From Armatimonadota bacterium (GTDB lineage: Bacteria; Armatimonadota; UBA5829; JAUSEB01), in the NCBI GenBank assembly GCA_030650495.1, contig JAUSEB010000004.1:1-44872 (forward strand): a DNA stretch of 44,872 bases, in the 5' to 3' direction. The notes beneath the pieces were generated by a model. That model made no database searches, was not told the origin of the DNA, and saw nothing but the letters and a program-made list of their open reading frames with translations. This document shows, in pieces, positions 13,122 to 43,130 of this stretch. Positions within the stretch are counted from its first letter, which is position 1. Each line of letters starts with the position of its first letter. Both the position numbers and the translations under genes were made by a program.

Positions 13122-13364
13122 TGGCGTATAAAACCTTTCTTCTTATAAAGCATAAATATGAATGATGGCAGCCACCAACAGGCGAATTCACGCCCTGAAC
13201 CGGCGGCGACAAACCAGGTTGCGCACGATCTCCGGTAATGGCCGCAAAAGAAGTGTTCCATAAAACAAGCGTGGCGTCCAAGTAAATTCTACAGGAAATA
13301 GCGCCGATGTCATTATGAAAACGCCCAACGGCGGTTTTGGTGGTTGTCGGTTGAGGGTTGAGGG

Positions 13365-13400
13365 AAAGCTGTCAGCTGTCAGCTGACAGCTGACAGCTTT
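13365..13400. repeat. Perfect 36-nt palindrome of the AGCTGTCAG family
   Basis: Left arm AAAGCTGTCAGCTGTCAG is followed at once by its exact reverse complement. Related copies: 22768-22838 (split), 23979-24008, 30427-30446, 32320-32346, 39022-39053, 43140-43157. It sits in the 380-nt gap between the divergent motA and glycosidase genes, after a GGTTGTCGGTTGAGGGTTGA tract. Confidence 0.95.
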
Positions 13401-13430
13401 GACTCTCTCGACTCCCTCAAACACACAAAA

Positions 13431-18985: not shown

Positions 18986-19061
18986 GCTTCGGGATACGCA
19001 TTTCATCCCGAAGCGCTCTCACATGCCAGATACTTCGGGACGAAAGACGAGTCCCGAAGTA
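18986..19061. repeat. Two CTTCGGGA-type hairpins
   Basis: The first has arms GCTTCGGGAT/ATCCCGAAGC (18986-19014, loop 9). The second has arms TACTTCGGGAC/GTCCCGAAGTA (19031-19061, loop 9). Both are perfect. The first could end the WD40 transcript. The second is the uninterrupted form of the outer element split at 41600-41751. Confidence 0.85.
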
Positions 19062-20058: not shown

Positions 20059-20083
20059 GTTTCGGGAATCTTGTTCCCGAAAC
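20059..20083 (+). repeat. Hairpin GTTTCGGGAA / TTCCCGAAAC, also possible dapF terminator
   Basis: Perfect 10-bp stem with loop TCTTG, 33 nt after the stop codon. An identical 25-nt copy is at 27073-27097, where it interrupts a gene remnant, so it is a dispersed element rather than only a terminator. Confidence 0.85.
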
Positions 20084-20090
20084 GATTGTA

Positions 20091-20226
20091 TGCTGCGGGA
20101 ATGGTCTTATAGTAGAGACTTATATATTTAATCCACCGCAATTCCCGCAGTACGTGAGTGAGTTTGCTGCGGGAACTACTTTATTCTTAATCCAAGGCTT
20201 TATCCAAATACACCGTTCCCGCAGCA
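20091..20226. repeat. Two TGCTGCGGGAA-type long-loop hairpins
   Basis: The first has CTGCGGGAAT at 20092 pairing with ATTCCCGCAG at 20141. The second has TGCTGCGGGAAC at about 20176 pairing with GTTCCCGCAGCA at about 20215. Loops are about 30-40 nt. A third copy is at 21527-21589, beyond the next gene. The first element and that copy also match each other as a 30-nt inverted repeat (one mismatch) bracketing the DUF2961 gene. Confidence 0.8.
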
Positions 20227-20249
20227 TAGCGCGCCAAGCAACAACCCCA

Positions 20250-21505: not shown

Positions 21506-21526
21506 TAGGAAGTCGCGGGGTCACTG

Positions 21527-21589
21527 TGCTGCGGGAATTGCGATAGACTAAGCGCATCAATCTCTGCTATAAGACCATTCCCGCAGCAT
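21527..21589. repeat. TGCTGCGGGAA-type long-loop hairpin, third copy
   Basis: GTGCTGCGGGAATTG at the left and CATTCCCGCAGCAT at the right, loop about 30 nt. Forms a long inverted repeat with 20090-20119. Confidence 0.8.
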
Positions 21590-21590
21590 A

Positions 21591-21672
21591 CTAACCCCCC
21601 TCAATCCCCCCTTCTCAAGGGGGGAAGTGTCGTAGCTCCCCTCCTTACGAAGGAGGGGTTGGGGGAGGTTAA
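21591..21672. repeat. CCCCTCCTTACGAAGGAGGGG element, copy 1
   Basis: About 80 nt. It has outer arms CTAACCCCCCTCAATCCCC and GGGGTTGGGGGAGGTTAA, and inner hairpins CCCCCCTT/AAGGGGGG and CCCCTCCTTACGAAGGAGGGG. Copies in the same orientation are at 25671-25742 and 36148-36226. It supplies the sequence just upstream of the propeller gene's AAGGA site. Confidence 0.92.
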
Positions 21673-23866: not shown

Positions 23867-23978
23867 GGCGTATCCTCCGTCTCTTCTTTCAAATACTCAC
23901 GCAAATCAAACATAGGCCGTGGAAACAGCTTATCCGAGGAGGAACTACATGTCAATACGGGGAGGGAGTTGGGTTTAA

Positions 23979-24008
23979 GCTGTCAGCTGTCAGCTGACAG
24001 CTGACAGC
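23979..24008. repeat. Perfect 30-nt AGCTGTCAG-family palindrome
   Basis: GCTGTCAGCTGTCAG followed by its reverse complement, 6 nt from the stop of the helical-repeat gene. It lies between two minus-strand genes. Confidence 0.92.
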
Positions 24009-24014
24009 ATAAAA

Positions 24015-24626
24015 CTAATCTCCGCGCTTATCTGTGGTTATCCGCAGTTGGCTCTCAACACCAGCGTCCGCCATCTCCTGCACAGAGCGTATGAACCTGC
24101 GCATGCGTTTGCGGTCCCAGTCATCGGCTGAAAGCTGGTAAGCCCTTCTGAGATAGGGCAGCGCCTTTCCCGGCTGATTGAGCTTTCTTGCGTAAATTGT
24201 GCCCATTATCTCATGAACGGCCATATTGTCGGGGTTATTATGAACGCCTTCTTTCAGATATTCGATTCCCTCGTTGGTGCGGTCCATCCCCATGCACAGC
24301 ATCCACGATCCGAGTAAATAGGCATCCACGAAATGCGGGTCCAAATCCGTGATGACTTTGACCAGAGGGAGTATCTCTTTGTTAGCGCGCCAATTGGTGT
24401 TCGTGCGGATGAATTCATGATGGTACTTTTCCACTTTAATCCACAACACATTTGCTATCACCGATCGGAATTCACCGGCTAAGGCGTACATAGCCGATTC
24501 ACTCTTACCGGCGCGTCCAAGGCTGGTCTTCTCATAATTGGCGTCAACAACGGGTTCGAGGATGCATAATGCAGCGAATATGGCTATGAATGGCAAAAAT
24601 TTCCGAATGGCTGCCGTTTTTCTCAT
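24015..24626 (-). CDS. Membrane-anchored TPR-like protein of the ABC locus
   Basis: About 203 residues. An N-terminal basic segment and hydrophobic helix (FLPFIAIFAALCILEPVV) form a signal anchor. Helical repeats follow, of which AYLLGSWMLCMGMDRTNEGIEYLKEG and the next (AVHEIMGTIYARKLNQPGKALPYLRRAY, spread over two helices) are TPR-like. The start at 24626 has GGAGG 9 nt upstream and overlaps the stop of the small membrane gene (ATGA-type), so translation is coupled. The last residues (LRITTDKRGD) and stop are encoded by a dispersed GATAACCACAGATAAGCGC-type repeat. Likely a partner of the exporter encoded just upstream. Confidence 0.8.
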   Translation of the reverse strand: MRKTAAIRKFLPFIAIFAALCILEPVVDANYEKTSLGRAGKSESAMYALAGEFRSVIANVLWIKVEKYHHEFIRTNTNWRANKEILPLVKVITDLDPHFVDAYLLGSWMLCMGMDRTNEGIEYLKEGVHNNPDNMAVHEIMGTIYARKLNQPGKALPYLRRAYQLSADDWDRKRMRRFIRSVQEMADAGVESQLRITTDKRGD

Positions 24627-29961: not shown

Positions 29962-30046
29962 TGTAGCCTAGCCCCCTTGTGGGCGTAAATGAAACTGTAG
30001 CCTAGCCCCTTGTGGGCGTTATAACGGGGACAAGCCCCTAGGCTAC
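29962..30046. repeat. TGTAGCCTAGCCCC tandem/palindromic element
   Basis: Two direct copies of TGTAGCCTAGCCCC...TTGTGGGCG (29962-29985, 29997-30018), the second followed by its complement (GGGGACAAGCCCCTAGGCTAC, in part) to give a hairpin. A relative forms the core of 41633-41706. It separates the T-box terminator from the valS start. Confidence 0.8.
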
Positions 30047-30055
30047 GGCAAATAC

Positions 30056-30387
30056 AAAAAGCCCCACTCGACCCGCACAAGGACGAGAGGGGCGCAAATG
30101 CTCCTTCGTGGTACCACCTTGATTCTCCCGACAAATCGGGACTCGTTTTCGCTATAACGGGCTTACCCGGCGAAGGTTACATGGAAGAGTGTAGTTAGTT
30201 GTTAGTTGTTAGTGGCTAGTAAATACTAGCAACTAACTACTAGCTACTAACAACTTATCTTTCACCTTCGCGGCTCCGGGGCGACCTTCGGTCGGGGCTT
30301 CACAGCCGGGAGACTCACACCAAACGCTCCCTCTCTGAGGCCGGCTTGCCGCCTACTCCTCCCCATCACTGCCTTTGCTTATATTAT
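30056..30387 (-). promoter_or_regulatory. T-box leader of valS
   Basis: Read on the minus strand. A stem I region with GTGATGGGGAGGAGTAGGCG, the AGAGAGGGAGCG motif and GGTGTGAGTCTCCC is followed by a T-box antiterminator (AAGGTGGTACCACG, 30121-30108). A Rho-independent terminator comes next (stem 30093-30061, GCCCCTCTCG pairing with CGAGTGGGGC, then five T at 30060-30056). Uncharged tRNA-Val would pair with the leader and T-box to favour antitermination. I could not fix the specifier codon with certainty; a GTC in the stem I internal loop is a candidate. A 67-nt repeat lies between stem I and the antiterminator. Confidence 0.92.
30191..30257. repeat. TTAGTTGTTAGTTG palindromic tract inside the T-box leader
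   Basis: GTAGTTAGTTGTTAGTTGTT at the left and AACTAACTACTAGCTACTAA at the right, meeting at CTAGTAAATACTAG. The whole tract can fold on itself as an independent hairpin, so it could sit in the leader as a neutral side arm. Similar TTAG/CTAA words flank the tRNA genes. Confidence 0.85.
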
Positions 30388-32319: not shown

Positions 32320-32393
32320 AAGCTGTCAGCTGACAGGTGACAGCTTTTCCATCTGCGTTTATCTGCGCTTATCTGCGTTAATCTGCGTTCTTC
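32320..32393. repeat. AGCTGTCAG palindrome plus four 10-nt ATCTGCGTTA units
   Basis: CTGTCAGCTGACAG (32323-32336) is palindromic. Then TCTGCGTTTA, TCTGCGCTTA, TCTGCGTTAA and TCTGCGTTCT run in tandem (about 32352-32391). Its complement (GATAAGCGCAGAT) is the word found at the 3' ends of the helical-repeat and GH29 genes. Confidence 0.85.
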
Positions 32394-38261: not shown

Positions 38262-38336
38262 TGGAGCGGGAGACGGGATTCGAACCCGCGACATCCACCT
38301 TGGCAAGGTGGCGTTCTACCACTGAACCACTCCCGC
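38262..38336 (-). tRNA. tRNA-Gly (anticodon GCC)
   Basis: 75 nt with encoded CCA. Acceptor GCGGGAG/CTCCCGC, anticodon loop TTGCCAA, T loop GGTTCGAATCC. Decodes GGC/GGU. First in position of a three-tRNA minus-strand cluster. Confidence 0.97.
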
Positions 38337-38338
38337 GT

Positions 38339-38480
38339 TTAGATGTTAGAGGTTAGAAGATAGAAGATATCTTTCCCTAACCTCTTACCTCTAATTCCTA
38401 ACCCCTAGACTTTCAAAGTTAGATGTTAGAAATCAGAAACAGTTCGTTCTAACCTCTAACCTCTAACTTCTAGCCTCTAG
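38339..38480. repeat. TTAGAGGTTAGAAG / CTAACCTCTAAC tracts between tRNA genes
   Basis: Alternating purine-rich (TTAGATGTTAGAGGTTAG) and complementary (CTAACCTCTTACCTCTAA) runs make two back-to-back long hairpins that fill the tRNA-Gly/tRNA-Leu spacer. Confidence 0.85.
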
Positions 38481-38482
38481 AC

Positions 38483-38566
38483 TGGTGGGCGAGAGGAGAG
38501 TCGAACTCCTACGCCTCGCGGCACTAGGTCCTAAGCCTAGCGTGTCTGCCATTCCACCACTCGCCC
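38483..38566 (-). tRNA. tRNA-Leu (anticodon TAG)
   Basis: 84 nt with encoded CCA and the long variable arm of a class II tRNA. Acceptor GGGCGAG/CTCGCCC, anticodon loop CTTAGGA, T loop AGTTCGACTC. Reads CUN leucine codons. Confidence 0.97.
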
Positions 38567-39021: not shown

Positions 39022-39053
39022 AGCTGTCAGCTGTCAGCTGACAGCTGACAGCT
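39022..39053. repeat. Perfect 32-nt AGCTGTCAG-family palindrome
   Basis: AGCTGTCAGCTGTCAG followed by its reverse complement, 69 nt before the epimerase-like gene. Confidence 0.95.
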
Positions 39054-40228: not shown

Positions 40229-41578
40229 ATGGAAATGGCAATCACAAATGAACACAGATTGGGATTAGGATTAGGGTGGGCGTTTACAGCTCTGCTTGTC
40301 GCGTTGCTGGCGCTGGCGCTATGCGTCCCATTGTGGGCAGCAACAGCCGTCGAAGATCAATCGTATTCGCGGGCGACCCCGGAGCAAATGAAATGGTGGA
40401 GCGAGGCGCGCTTCGGGTTGTTCGTCCACTGGGGGCCGATAAGTCTGAAGGGGACGGAGATCGGTTGGTCGCGCGGCAAGTACGGTGGCCGGGGTCTGGA
40501 GCAGGGCGGAGGCATTATACCGGTTGAAGAGTATGATAATCTCTACAAGCAATTCAACCCGGTGAAATTCGATCCCGACGAATGGGTCCGCATTGCCAAG
40601 GCCGCCGGGATGAAATATCTTGTCTTCACTACTAAACACCACGACGGCTTCTGCGAGTTCGACAGCAAACTGACCGACTACAAGATCACGAACTCGCCTT
40701 ACGGCAAGGACATCGTGGCGCAGCTTGCCAAAGCCTGTTACAAAGCCAAGTTGCCTCTGGGATTCTACTATTCGCCGCTGGACTGGCATCATCCCGATTA
40801 CTTCACAGCCAACCATGCTCGGTACATCGAGTATATGCACGGCCAATTGCGCGAGTTGTGCACGAACTACGGAAAGATCAGTATAATCTGGTTCGATGGG
40901 CTTTTTTCGACCGCGGAGGACATGGATTCGCCGCGCATGATCAAGATGATCCGCGAATTGCAACCGGGAATTCTGATAAACAACCGAGCGGGACTGCCGG
41001 CGGATTTCGGCACACCCGAACAGGAGATTGGCGGTTTCGACAACACCCGGCCATGGGAGAGTTGCATCACTATTGGGAACAGGTGGTCGTGGAAGCCGAA
41101 CGACAACATCCAGTCGCTCAAAGAATGCATCGACACATTGGCGCTCTGCGCCGGCGGCGATGGCAATCTGCTGCTGAATGTTGGCCCTATGCCGGATGGG
41201 CGCATCGAAGACCGACAGGTCGAGAGGCTCAAGGAGATCGGCGCTTGGCTGAAGAAGAACGGCGAGAGCATCTATGCGACCCATGGCGGGCCGTTCATGC
41301 CGACCAAGAACATCGCCAGCACATACAAGAGCAAGACCGTCTTCCTGCACATTCTTAAATGGCCGGAAGGCGCCGATGAGATCAAGCTGCCAGGTATTGG
41401 GAAGAAAATAGTGTCCGCCAGACTCTTGACCGGTGGCAAAGTGAACGTGGAGCAGCGCGCCGATTGCATTCAGGTAATGATCAAGCCGGAAGATCGAAAC
41501 GCGTTGGACACCATAGTCGCGCTCAAGCTGGACGGACCGGCATCGGATATCGAACCGGTTCGGTTAACCACGGATTAA
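40229..41578 (+). CDS. Alpha-L-fucosidase, GH29 family
   Basis: 449 residues. The N-terminal about 38 residues form a long signal peptide ending LCVPLWAATA, so the enzyme is exported. The GH29 barrel follows: RFGLFVHWGPIS, KYLVFTTKHHDGFCEFDS, LGFYYSPLDWHHPDY, and IIWFDGLFS with the likely nucleophile Asp223. The WESCITIGNRWSW segment is typical of the subfamily; the acid/base residue cannot be set by eye. A beta-sandwich C-terminal domain closes the protein. It removes fucose from oligosaccharides in the periplasm. The last codons (VRLTTD, stop) lie in a TAACCACGGATTAACGC repeat. Second gene of the pair with DUF4432. Confidence 0.93.
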   Translation: MEMAITNEHRLGLGLGWAFTALLVALLALALCVPLWAATAVEDQSYSRATPEQMKWWSEARFGLFVHWGPISLKGTEIGWSRGKYGGRGLEQGGGIIPVEEYDNLYKQFNPVKFDPDEWVRIAKAAGMKYLVFTTKHHDGFCEFDSKLTDYKITNSPYGKDIVAQLAKACYKAKLPLGFYYSPLDWHHPDYFTANHARYIEYMHGQLRELCTNYGKISIIWFDGLFSTAEDMDSPRMIKMIRELQPGILINNRAGLPADFGTPEQEIGGFDNTRPWESCITIGNRWSWKPNDNIQSLKECIDTLALCAGGDGNLLLNVGPMPDGRIEDRQVERLKEIGAWLKKNGESIYATHGGPFMPTKNIASTYKSKTVFLHILKWPEGADEIKLPGIGKKIVSARLLTGGKVNVEQRADCIQVMIKPEDRNALDTIVALKLDGPASDIEPVRLTTD

Positions 41579-41599: not shown

Positions 41600-41751
41600 C
41601 TTCGGGACGAAAAACGGGAGTGTTCAAAAACCGTAGCCCCGGCCCTTGTGGCCGGTCGGCGATAGTGAATCTACGCTCAGCAGACGGGGCACAAGGCCCC
41701 GAGCTACAGGTATATAGGACTTTTTGAACATTCCCAAAACGAGTCCCGAAG
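41600..41751. repeat. Three-level nested inverted repeat
   Basis: Outer arms CTTCGGGAC/GTCCCGAAG (41600-41608, 41743-41751). Middle arms GGGAGTGTTCAAAAA/TTTTTGAACATTCCC (41616-41630, 41721-41735). Inner arms GTAGCCCCGGCCCTTGTG and its near complement (41633-41650, 41689-41706). The outer and inner elements occur alone at 19031-19061 and 29962-30046. It fills most of the 271-nt gap before the beta-helix gene. Confidence 0.93.
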
Positions 41752-41790
41752 TATAGCCTTTCGTGTTTTTAATATTTCGTGCTTTCGTGA

Positions 41791-41849: not shown

Positions 41850-43130
41850 TTGCGAATCAAATCATTCATCTCTCTCGTCATTATTCTTGCATTTGCCGCA
41901 AGCATGGCCTGGGCCAAATCGAGCGATAAATCCGCTCCATTTGGCGCGGTCAGCGTGAAATCCTTCGGCGCCAAAGCCGACGGCAAGACCGACGACACCG
42001 CCGCATTCCAGAAAGCCATAGATTCTCTTAAAACTAAAGGCGGAACAGCTTTCGCGCCGGCGGGAGCCTATCTCATCGCCGGATCTCTGACTCTGTATCC
42101 CGGCGTGACTCTAAGCGGAGTATGGGAGGCCCCGCATCTGTCCATCAACAAGGGGACTGTCATCCTTGCCACCGGCGGCGAAGGAGATGAGAACGGTAAG
42201 CCTTTGGTCAACATGGACTGGAACACTTGCGTAAAAGGCCTGACCGTCATTTACCCAAACCAAAAGGCTAACAAGATCACGCCTTACCCCTGGACCTTCA
42301 TCGGCAAAGGAATGCACTGCACCATCGAGAACGTTACCCTGGCCAATTCATACAAAGCCATCGCTTTCCCGACCTGGAACGAAGTGCATTACATCAAGAA
42401 CGTCTACGGCTGCCCCCTCAAAGAAGGCATTTTCATAGACAACTGCACCGACATCGGTAGGATCGAAGACGTTCACTTCAGCATCAACTACTGGACTCGC
42501 GCCGAAGCCCCTTACGTCGTACCGAAAGAAGATCACGACAAGCTGGAAAACTTTATTGTGAACAATCTGGTCGCTTTCCGTATTGGCAGAACCGACTGGG
42601 AGTATATGACCAACTGCTTCAGCATACTTGCCAAAATTGGCTACCATTTCGTAAAAACCGAAAAGGGCAACGGAAACGTGGTTCTGACCCAATGCGGCGC
42701 TGATGGAACAGCCATCGCCGTTCAGGTTGATTCCTGCCAGCCGCACGCGGGCATTGCCTTCGTAAACAGCCAGTTTATGTGCAAAGTAGTTATTACGGAC
42801 ACGAACAACGGTCCGGTGAAGTTCTCCAACTGCGGCTTCTGGCCAACAGCCTTGGTAGAAGGCCAGGCGATTCTCGAAGGATATTCCACGGTCACATTCT
42901 CCACTTGCCACTTCCTCGAATGGGGAAGGAAAAACCCAAAAGCCGTTTGCATCGTAGCAAAACACGGTTCGCTAATAGTCACGGGCTGCGACTTCATGGC
43001 CGGAAAGCCACAGATAGAACTTGGACCGGACGTCAGTTCCGCTGCGATATTCGGCAATCTCTTGCGCGGCGGTCAGAAGATCATCAACAACAGCAAGGGT
43101 AACATTCAAATCGGGCTGAATATCGATTGA
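41850..43130 (+). CDS. Secreted right-handed beta-helix protein, pectate-lyase-3-like
   Basis: 426 residues with a signal peptide (RIKSFISLVIILAFAASMAWA). The mature start has the classic SVKSFGAKADGKTDDTAAFQ segment and GGTAFAPAGAYLI of Pectate_lyase_3/GH28-like beta helices, followed by coil repeats (FIDNCTDIGRIEDVHF; VNSQFMCKVVI; FSNCGFWP; VTGCDFMAG). The family includes polygalacturonase-like enzymes and tailspike hydrolases, but the catalytic aspartates of GH28 are not clear here, so it may bind rather than cut. TTG start with AAAGGA 10 nt upstream. Extracytoplasmic action on pectin-like chains is inferred from context. Confidence 0.85.
   Translation: MRIKSFISLVIILAFAASMAWAKSSDKSAPFGAVSVKSFGAKADGKTDDTAAFQKAIDSLKTKGGTAFAPAGAYLIAGSLTLYPGVTLSGVWEAPHLSINKGTVILATGGEGDENGKPLVNMDWNTCVKGLTVIYPNQKANKITPYPWTFIGKGMHCTIENVTLANSYKAIAFPTWNEVHYIKNVYGCPLKEGIFIDNCTDIGRIEDVHFSINYWTRAEAPYVVPKEDHDKLENFIVNNLVAFRIGRTDWEYMTNCFSILAKIGYHFVKTEKGNGNVVLTQCGADGTAIAVQVDSCQPHAGIAFVNSQFMCKVVITDTNNGPVKFSNCGFWPTALVEGQAILEGYSTVTFSTCHFLEWGRKNPKAVCIVAKHGSLIVTGCDFMAGKPQIELGPDVSSAAIFGNLLRGGQKIINNSKGNIQIGLNID

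What the first reader, a model, noticed from the sequence alone, without database searches (positions are those of the whole stretch)
41600..41751. Three palindromic elements nested inside one another
Three different inverted repeats share one centre: CTTCGGGAC arms outside, GGGAGTGTTCAAAAA arms inside them, and a GTAGCCC...GGGCTAC-like element innermost. The outer one exists uninterrupted at 19031-19061 with a 9-nt loop, and the inner family exists alone at 29962-30046. The simplest history is repeated insertion of short palindromic elements into the loops of others, that is, hairpin loops as preferred targets. No transposase is near, so a trans-acting enzyme (REP-associated tyrosine transposase, IS200-like, or a group acting on single-stranded loops) is expected elsewhere in the genome.
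Basis: partly seen in the sequence, partly recalled or inferred. Interest (0 to 1): 0.78.

Follow-up and report, generated by a model that had tools for sequence, protein, structure and literature searches.

The report
REP-loop-targeting MITE carrying REPs
A tiny non-coding mobile element has landed, here and in almost every other copy examined, exactly in the loop of one particular hairpin-forming repeat, and it carries other repeats of that general kind as cargo; this is a clean, genome-wide case of a known but rarely documented behaviour in a little-studied bacterial phylum.

Summary
The nesting is real. 41616-41735 is a 120-bp MITE (15-bp TIRs GGGAGTGTTCAAAAA) in the loop of a 27-bp palindrome CTTCGGGAC-N9-GTCCCGAAG, flanked by a 5-bp TSD (AAAAC). 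Intact palindromes identical to the reconstructed empty site occur elsewhere in the genome. In 1.16 Mb read, 39 of 40 complete copies with both flanks, and 29 of 29 contig-edge copies, lie in this one palindrome family, although 242 other comparable hairpins were free. TSDs are 4 bp in 26-bp palindromes and 5 bp in 27-bp ones. MITE orientation is 23:25, so the composite is not a fixed unit. A sister-genus genome (Armatimonadota) has different MITEs with the same TIR in the same palindromes. Two other genera have many palindromes but no such MITE. There the palindromes flank RAYT genes (one intact, one truncated), so the outer element is a REP family. The innermost element is MITE cargo: a GTAG-tagged or, in 141-bp copies, CGTC-tagged REP dimer. 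No MITE lacking cargo was found, so three successive insertions are not shown. "Hairpin loops in general" is rejected. The MITE's transposase was not found. Best verdict: new variant of a known kind (REP-targeting transposable element).

The parts
41600..41608 (+). left stem arm of the outer REP-like palindrome (CTTCGGGAC)
41743..41751 (+). right stem arm of the outer palindrome (GTCCCGAAG), followed by the conserved NATAG tail (TATAG, 41752-41756)
41611..41615 (+). left target-site duplication AAAAC, in the palindrome loop
   Evidence: without one copy and the MITE the site reads CTTCGGGACGAAAAACGAGTCCCGAAG, found intact in contigs C101, C115 and C406
41736..41740 (+). right target-site duplication AAAAC
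41616..41735 (+). MITE, 120 bp, no ORF; GTAG-cargo subtype; 48 complete copies in the 1.16 Mb read
41616..41630 (+). left terminal inverted repeat GGGAGTGTTCAAAAA
   Evidence: I14
41721..41735 (+). right terminal inverted repeat TTTTTGAACATTCCC (one mismatch)
   Evidence: I14
41633..41707 (+). cargo: inverted pair of GTAG-tagged REPs (GTAGCCCCGGCCCTTGTGGCCGG ... GGGGCACAAGGCCCCGAGCTAC)
   Evidence: GTAG/CGTC REP classes described in PMC3733652
18987..19013 (-). uninterrupted outer palindrome (27 bp), first half of an outward-tagged dimer
19033..19059 (+). uninterrupted outer palindrome CTTCGGGACGAAAGACGAGTCCCGAAG, second half of the dimer, 19-nt spacer
29963..30046 (+). GTAG-tagged REPs standing alone: a dimer plus one more unit, no MITE ends

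Best explanation
Two unrelated mobile repeats, one inside the other, the inner one carrying repeat cargo. (a) Outer: a REP-like element, a 26-27-bp imperfect palindrome CTTCGG-nnn-(8-9-nt A-rich loop)-nnn-CCGAAG with a 3' tail NATAG, often in outward-tagged inverted pairs 19 nt apart; it is the REP family of a REP-associated tyrosine transposase (RAYT). (b) Middle: a family of DDE-type MITEs with 15-bp TIRs GGGAGTGTTCAAAAA that transposes almost only into the loop of this REP. The transposase makes staggered cuts centred on the dyad axis, which on repair give a 4-bp TSD in 26-bp and a 5-bp TSD in 27-bp REPs. Insertion is in either orientation, mostly intergenic, and keeps a long hairpin. (c) Innermost: a GTAG- or CGTC-tagged REP dimer that the MITE carries as cargo. 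Shown: anatomy, target family, TSDs, free orientation, empty and filled paralogues, palindromes without MITEs in related genera, the RAYT-palindrome link in two genera. Inferred: the DDE chemistry, that an IS supplies the enzyme in trans, and how the cargo got in.
For: 39/40 complete copies with both flanks in the palindrome loop, 32 with a perfect TSD; 29/29 contig-edge copies likewise. TSD 4 bp in 26 of 27 reconstructed 26-mers (the other one base short) and 5 bp in the clean 27-mers. Reconstructed empty sites exist intact: 83 CTTCGGCTT-N8-AAGCCGAAG and 10 CTTCGGGAC-type sites. MITE orientation 23:25; two cargo classes and several MITE subtypes in several palindrome types. Dimers occur empty-empty, empty-filled and filled-filled. 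Sister genus G001: 141-286-bp MITEs with the same TIR in the same palindromes. G011 (61 copies) and G014 (24) have the palindrome and no exact palindrome-plus-TIR junction. In G011 a RAYT gene lies between two inverted palindromes, about 26 bp from each end, and a truncated RAYT is framed likewise in G014. 242 other hairpins untouched.
Against: No autonomous element with these TIRs was found; the PF13751, PF01609 and PF00872 transposases of G000/G001 have other ends. One 93-bp copy (L104:12057) lies outside a palindrome with no clear TSD. About five copies have mismatched flanks without TSD: recombination between copies, or misassembly. The RAYT-palindrome link comes from related genera; the two RAYTs found in G000 are flanked by other palindromes. 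No orthologous empty/filled pair between strains.
Confidence: 0.9

Rival explanations
1. Fixed composite: a MITE entered the palindrome once or a few times, and REP plus MITE then spread as one unit (RAYT-mediated or by recombination).
For: Most copies sit in the same REP subtype (CTTCGGCTT/CAAAGAAC). Copies with mismatched flanks show some later recombination.
Against: 23:25 orientation; 120- and 141-bp MITEs in the same REP subtypes; TSD follows each host palindrome's own loop; MITEs in either partner of otherwise similar dimers; different MITEs in the sister genus.
Confidence: 0.05
2. One reading: hairpin loops in general are preferred targets of a single-strand (HUH/Y1) enzyme, with three successive insertions.
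For: Insertion is in loops; RAYT genes are present.
Against: 242 other strong hairpins untouched, P about 10^-20 under an any-hairpin model; TIRs plus TSDs are not made by HUH enzymes; no empty MITE without cargo.
Confidence: 0.03
3. Structure-reading version of the main model: the transposase recognises the extruded cruciform or hairpin of this REP and measures the cut from the stem, so loop length sets TSD length.
For: Different complementary stems are used (CTTCGGCTT, CTTCGGCTC, CTTCGGGAC, CTTAGGCTT); cut centred on the dyad; TSD 4 for 8-nt loops, 5 for 9-nt loops.
Against: CTTCGG/CCGAAG and an A-rich loop are shared by nearly all targets, so binding of each half-site as ordinary duplex explains the same data; other hairpins are not used.
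Confidence: 0.25

Closest known systems
IS elements that target REPs: IS1397/ISKpn1 (IS3), IS621, ISPa11, ISPpu9, ISPpu10, ISRm19 (IS110), ISRm22 (IS4); Tobes & Pareja 2006, PMC1525189
   Same: Near-total target choice for one REP family; ISRm22 inserts at the palindrome axis (PMC1525189)
   Different: Those are full IS elements with a known transposase, about 4-10 copies each; this is a non-coding MITE with dozens of copies, unknown transposase, and REP cargo
GTAG- and CGTC-tagged REP dimers within palindromes (A. variabilis, T. roseum, H. neapolitanus); Di Nocera et al. 2013, PMC3733652
   Same: REP dimers enclosed by other inverted repeats; the H. neapolitanus enclosing palindrome (GGGaaGCTT-GAAAaACC) looks somewhat like this TIR
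   Different: There the REP was taken as inserting into a target palindrome and the passages read report no TSD for the enclosing repeat; here the enclosing repeat is itself a TSD-flanked mobile element in the loop of a third family
REP/RAYT (REPtron) systems
   Same: CTTCGG palindromes are short, dispersed, tagged, form inverted dimers and flank a RAYT gene in related genera
   Different: Tag is CTAT-N on the hairpin's 5' side instead of GTAG; loop of 8-9 nt; cognate RAYT not found in this genome
Bacterial MITEs (RUP, Correia/NEMIS, Nezha, MITEAba12)
   Same: 70-300 bp, non-coding, 15-bp TIRs, TSD, dispersed
   Different: Near-absolute insertion into one REP loop; cargo of tagged REP dimers

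Membership tests
MITE (non-autonomous DDE-type element) | terminal inverted repeats, short length, no coding capacity | tested here: met
   15-bp TIRs, 93-142 bp in G000
MITE (non-autonomous DDE-type element) | target-site duplication | tested here: met
   32 of 40 copies with both flanks have a perfect 4- or 5-bp TSD at the ends; reconstructed empty sites found
MITE (non-autonomous DDE-type element) | parent autonomous IS sharing the TIRs | tested here: inconclusive
   none in G000/G001 by TIR pairs in fetched DNA or by PF13751, PF01609, PF00872. A parent may be lost or missing from the assembly; other transposase families were not searched
REP element (outer palindrome) | 20-40 bp dispersed, mostly extragenic palindrome in high copy | tested here: met
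   at least 83 + 10 intact copies; 28 of 103 centres in ORFs >= 150 aa against 79% coverage
REP element (outer palindrome) | terminal GTAG or CGTC tag | tested here: not met
   conserved tail is NATAG 3' of the hairpin, CTAT-N on the other strand; so it is not a member of the GTAG or CGTC superfamilies
REP element (outer palindrome) | association with a RAYT gene (REPtron) | tested here: met
   intact RAYT framed by inverted copies in G011 (L297); truncated RAYT likewise in G014 (L296). Not seen in G000 itself
GTAG / CGTC REP (cargo) | GTAG or CGTC tag at the foot of a hairpin, inverted dimers, standalone copies | tested here: met
   TIRs and TSDs present

The most novel reading that the evidence does not exclude
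A DDE-type transposase that reads the extruded hairpin of a RAYT-made REP, so that loop length sets TSD length. Its MITEs ferry GTAG and CGTC REP dimers as cargo, giving the CGTC class, which has no known transposase, a second route of spread.
Probability: 0.22. Interest if true: 0.75.

Novelty: new variant of a known kind. Interest (0 to 1): 0.55.

Why it matters
It is an unusually clean natural experiment in target choice, with dozens of insertions, intact targets, palindrome-only genomes and two loop lengths. It shows one mobile repeat using another's hairpin as a mostly intergenic landing site. It also shows CGTC-tagged REP dimers, whose lack of a dedicated transposase is an open question in PMC3733652, lying inside TIR/TSD-bounded elements. 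It adds a CTAT-tagged REP family tied to a RAYT in Armatimonadota.

Tried and rejected
Autonomous parent IS: TIR pairs 0.6-3 kb apart in the fetched loci, three transposase families in G000/G001 and imperfect inverted repeats around their genes; none fits. A KSB1 match to the palindrome-plus-TIR pattern (L145) shows no second end and was set aside as chance. A second G001 family (TIR GGGGGTGTTGAAAA) was tested as further evidence for dyad targeting: several copies have 5-bp TSDs but most do not lie in long palindromes, so it does not support a general rule. A first count of 6049 'other hairpins' was an artefact of N runs; the corrected figure is 242. A script's stem list shifted some filled sites by one base through tied scores; its stem list for filled sites was not used for numbers, and its gaps of 17-18 nt next to filled sites are probably the same shift. 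The outer palindrome as a terminator of the gene ending at 41578: the scan shows no T-tailed hairpin there.

Full report
Observation. At 41600-41751 a 27-bp palindrome CTTCGGGAC-GAAAAACGA-GTCCCGAAG is split by a 120-bp element with 15-bp terminal inverted repeats (GGGAGTGTTCAAAAA, one mismatch) and an inverted pair of GTAG...CTAC units within. The strand folds at z = -8.1. The bases AAAAC are repeated on both sides of the element. Removing one copy and the element gives CTTCGGGACGAAAAACGAGTCCCGAAG, which exists intact in contigs C101, C115 and C406. The site lies between ORFs 40229-41578 and 41850-43130, both + strand.

Genome-wide copies. G000 (3.59 Mb, 464 contigs) has 163 TIR hits against 10 for the reversed control. 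I read 1.16 Mb of it, mostly contigs chosen because they hold TIR hits. That holds 48 complete copies; 40 have both flanks, and 39 of these sit in the CTTCGG palindrome loop, 32 with a perfect TSD (two of the 39, L063:11064 and L106:2227, in degenerate palindromes that the arm test did not pass and that I assigned by eye). All 29 contig-edge copies show CTTCGG (at most one mismatch) at the right distance. The exception is a 93-bp copy at L104:12057. The palindrome centres cover about 0.1% of the DNA, so chance gives about 10^-114. Among 242 other hairpins with perfect 9-bp stems and 6-10-nt loops none was used, while 65 intact ones belong to the CTTCGG class; an any-hairpin model gives about 10^-20. 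These counts treat copies as independent, which recombination between copies may weaken, but free orientation and several subtypes show many separate events.

TSD rule. Of 27 copies whose reconstructed site is a 26-bp palindrome (8-nt loop), 26 have a 4-bp TSD and one has 3; in clean 27-bp palindromes (9-nt loop, few copies) it is 5 bp (sequences). The cut is centred on the dyad in both.

Not a fixed unit. Orientation of the MITE against the palindrome is 23:25 over 48 copies, and 120- and 141-bp types occur in the same palindrome types. Palindromes form outward-tagged inverted dimers with a 19-nt spacer, seen empty-empty, empty-filled and filled-filled. About five copies have unlike left and right arms and no TSD, as expected from recombination between MITEs, though misassembly of a fragmented genome is possible.

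Related genomes. It has 141-286-bp elements with the same TIR in the same palindromes. The phylum of the window is inferred from this. G011 and G014, same order, have 61 and 24 exact CTTCGGGAC palindromes and no exact palindrome-plus-TIR junction. The target family thus exists without the MITE.

What the outer palindrome is. In G011 (L297) a 185-aa protein with the HUH motif and the YMHENPIRRNLV motif, matching NCBIfam REP_Tyr_transpos at E = 4e-21 (75.3 bits, just under the 80-bit cut-off), lies between two inverted copies of CTTCGGGAC-GAAAAACA-GTCCCGAAG, about 26 bp from each end of the gene, tags outward. A truncated relative (61% identical) is framed the same way in G014 (L296). This is the layout of a RAYT with its REPs. 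The two RAYTs found in G000 (C324, C114) are flanked by different palindromes, so the cognate enzyme was not found in this genome.

What the cargo is. The 120-bp copies carry inverted GTAG-tagged REPs, the 141-bp copies inverted CGTC-tagged REPs; both classes occur alone elsewhere in the genome, and both are described in PMC3733652. No MITE without cargo was seen, so the innermost level is cargo, and how it got in is unknown.

Mechanism. TIRs plus TSDs point to a DDE-type transposase acting in trans (established knowledge of IS/MITE biology). It was not found: transposases with PF13751, PF01609 or PF00872 in G000/G001 have other ends. Whether the enzyme reads the duplex half-sites or an extruded hairpin is open; varied but complementary stems and the loop-linked TSD length fit both.

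Known context. IS elements of five families target REPs, and ISRm22 inserts at the palindrome axis (PMC1525189). REP dimers enclosed by other palindromes were noted in PMC3733652. Four literature searches showed no MITE with this near-absolute REP-loop targeting and REP cargo, but the library holds open-licence papers only. Verdict: new variant of a known kind.

Noticed in passing
L116:1255-1853 (G000 C324) and L295:1232-1830 (G011 C107): Another RAYT group (HYH motif) framed by inverted 22-bp palindromes CTTCGGTAGCCTGCTGCCGAAG / CTTCGGTATCCTGATGCCGAAG: related genomes seem to keep several RAYT-REP pairs with different palindromes.
   Followed up: partly
L117:5604-6350 (G000 C114) and L293:1198-1839 (G014 C82): RAYT or RAYT-like Y1 genes framed by GTTTCGGGA...TCCCGAAAC palindromes, a family also seen in the window at 20059 and 27073.
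   Followed up: partly
L168:1362-1514, L177:1501-1650, L255:1215-1514, L256:1501-1652, L259:1501-1794 (G001): A second MITE family with related TIR GGGGGTGTTGAAAA; the two copies read in full carry CGTC-like REPs; some have 5-bp TSDs (ACAGT, TCAGA), and two lie in GGGAC...GTCCC palindromes without clear TSD.
   Followed up: partly
L101:1571, L107:1091, L104:17795, L076:8315, L066:7626: MITE copies whose left and right palindrome halves come from different palindrome types: possible MITE-mediated rearrangements, or misassembly.
   Followed up: no
window 13360-13405, 23969-24018, 32320-32346, 39022-39053: Dispersed palindromes built of AGCTGTCAGCTGACAGCT units, unrelated to the finding.
   Followed up: no
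window 30191-30255 and 38326-38486: Low-complexity GTTAGAAGTTAG / TAGTTGTTAGT-type repeats with inverted arms; similar CTAACTTCTAACTCC tracts often lie next to REPs in other contigs.
   Followed up: no
window 20089-20228 and 21517-21598: Inverted repeats sharing CTGCGGGAAT / ATTCCCGCAGCA, perhaps another dispersed repeat family.
   Followed up: no
window 38596: A CGTC-tagged REP unit (GTCATTCCGAGCGAAGCGAGGAATCT) standing alone, without MITE ends.
   Followed up: no
L182:1-300 (G000 C399) and L186 (G000 C313): DDE_Tnp_1_6 transposase pieces cut off at contig ends, with a shared end containing GGCTGTTGCAGAACTATGCAACAGC: an IS lost in assembly, not the parent of this MITE.
   Followed up: partly
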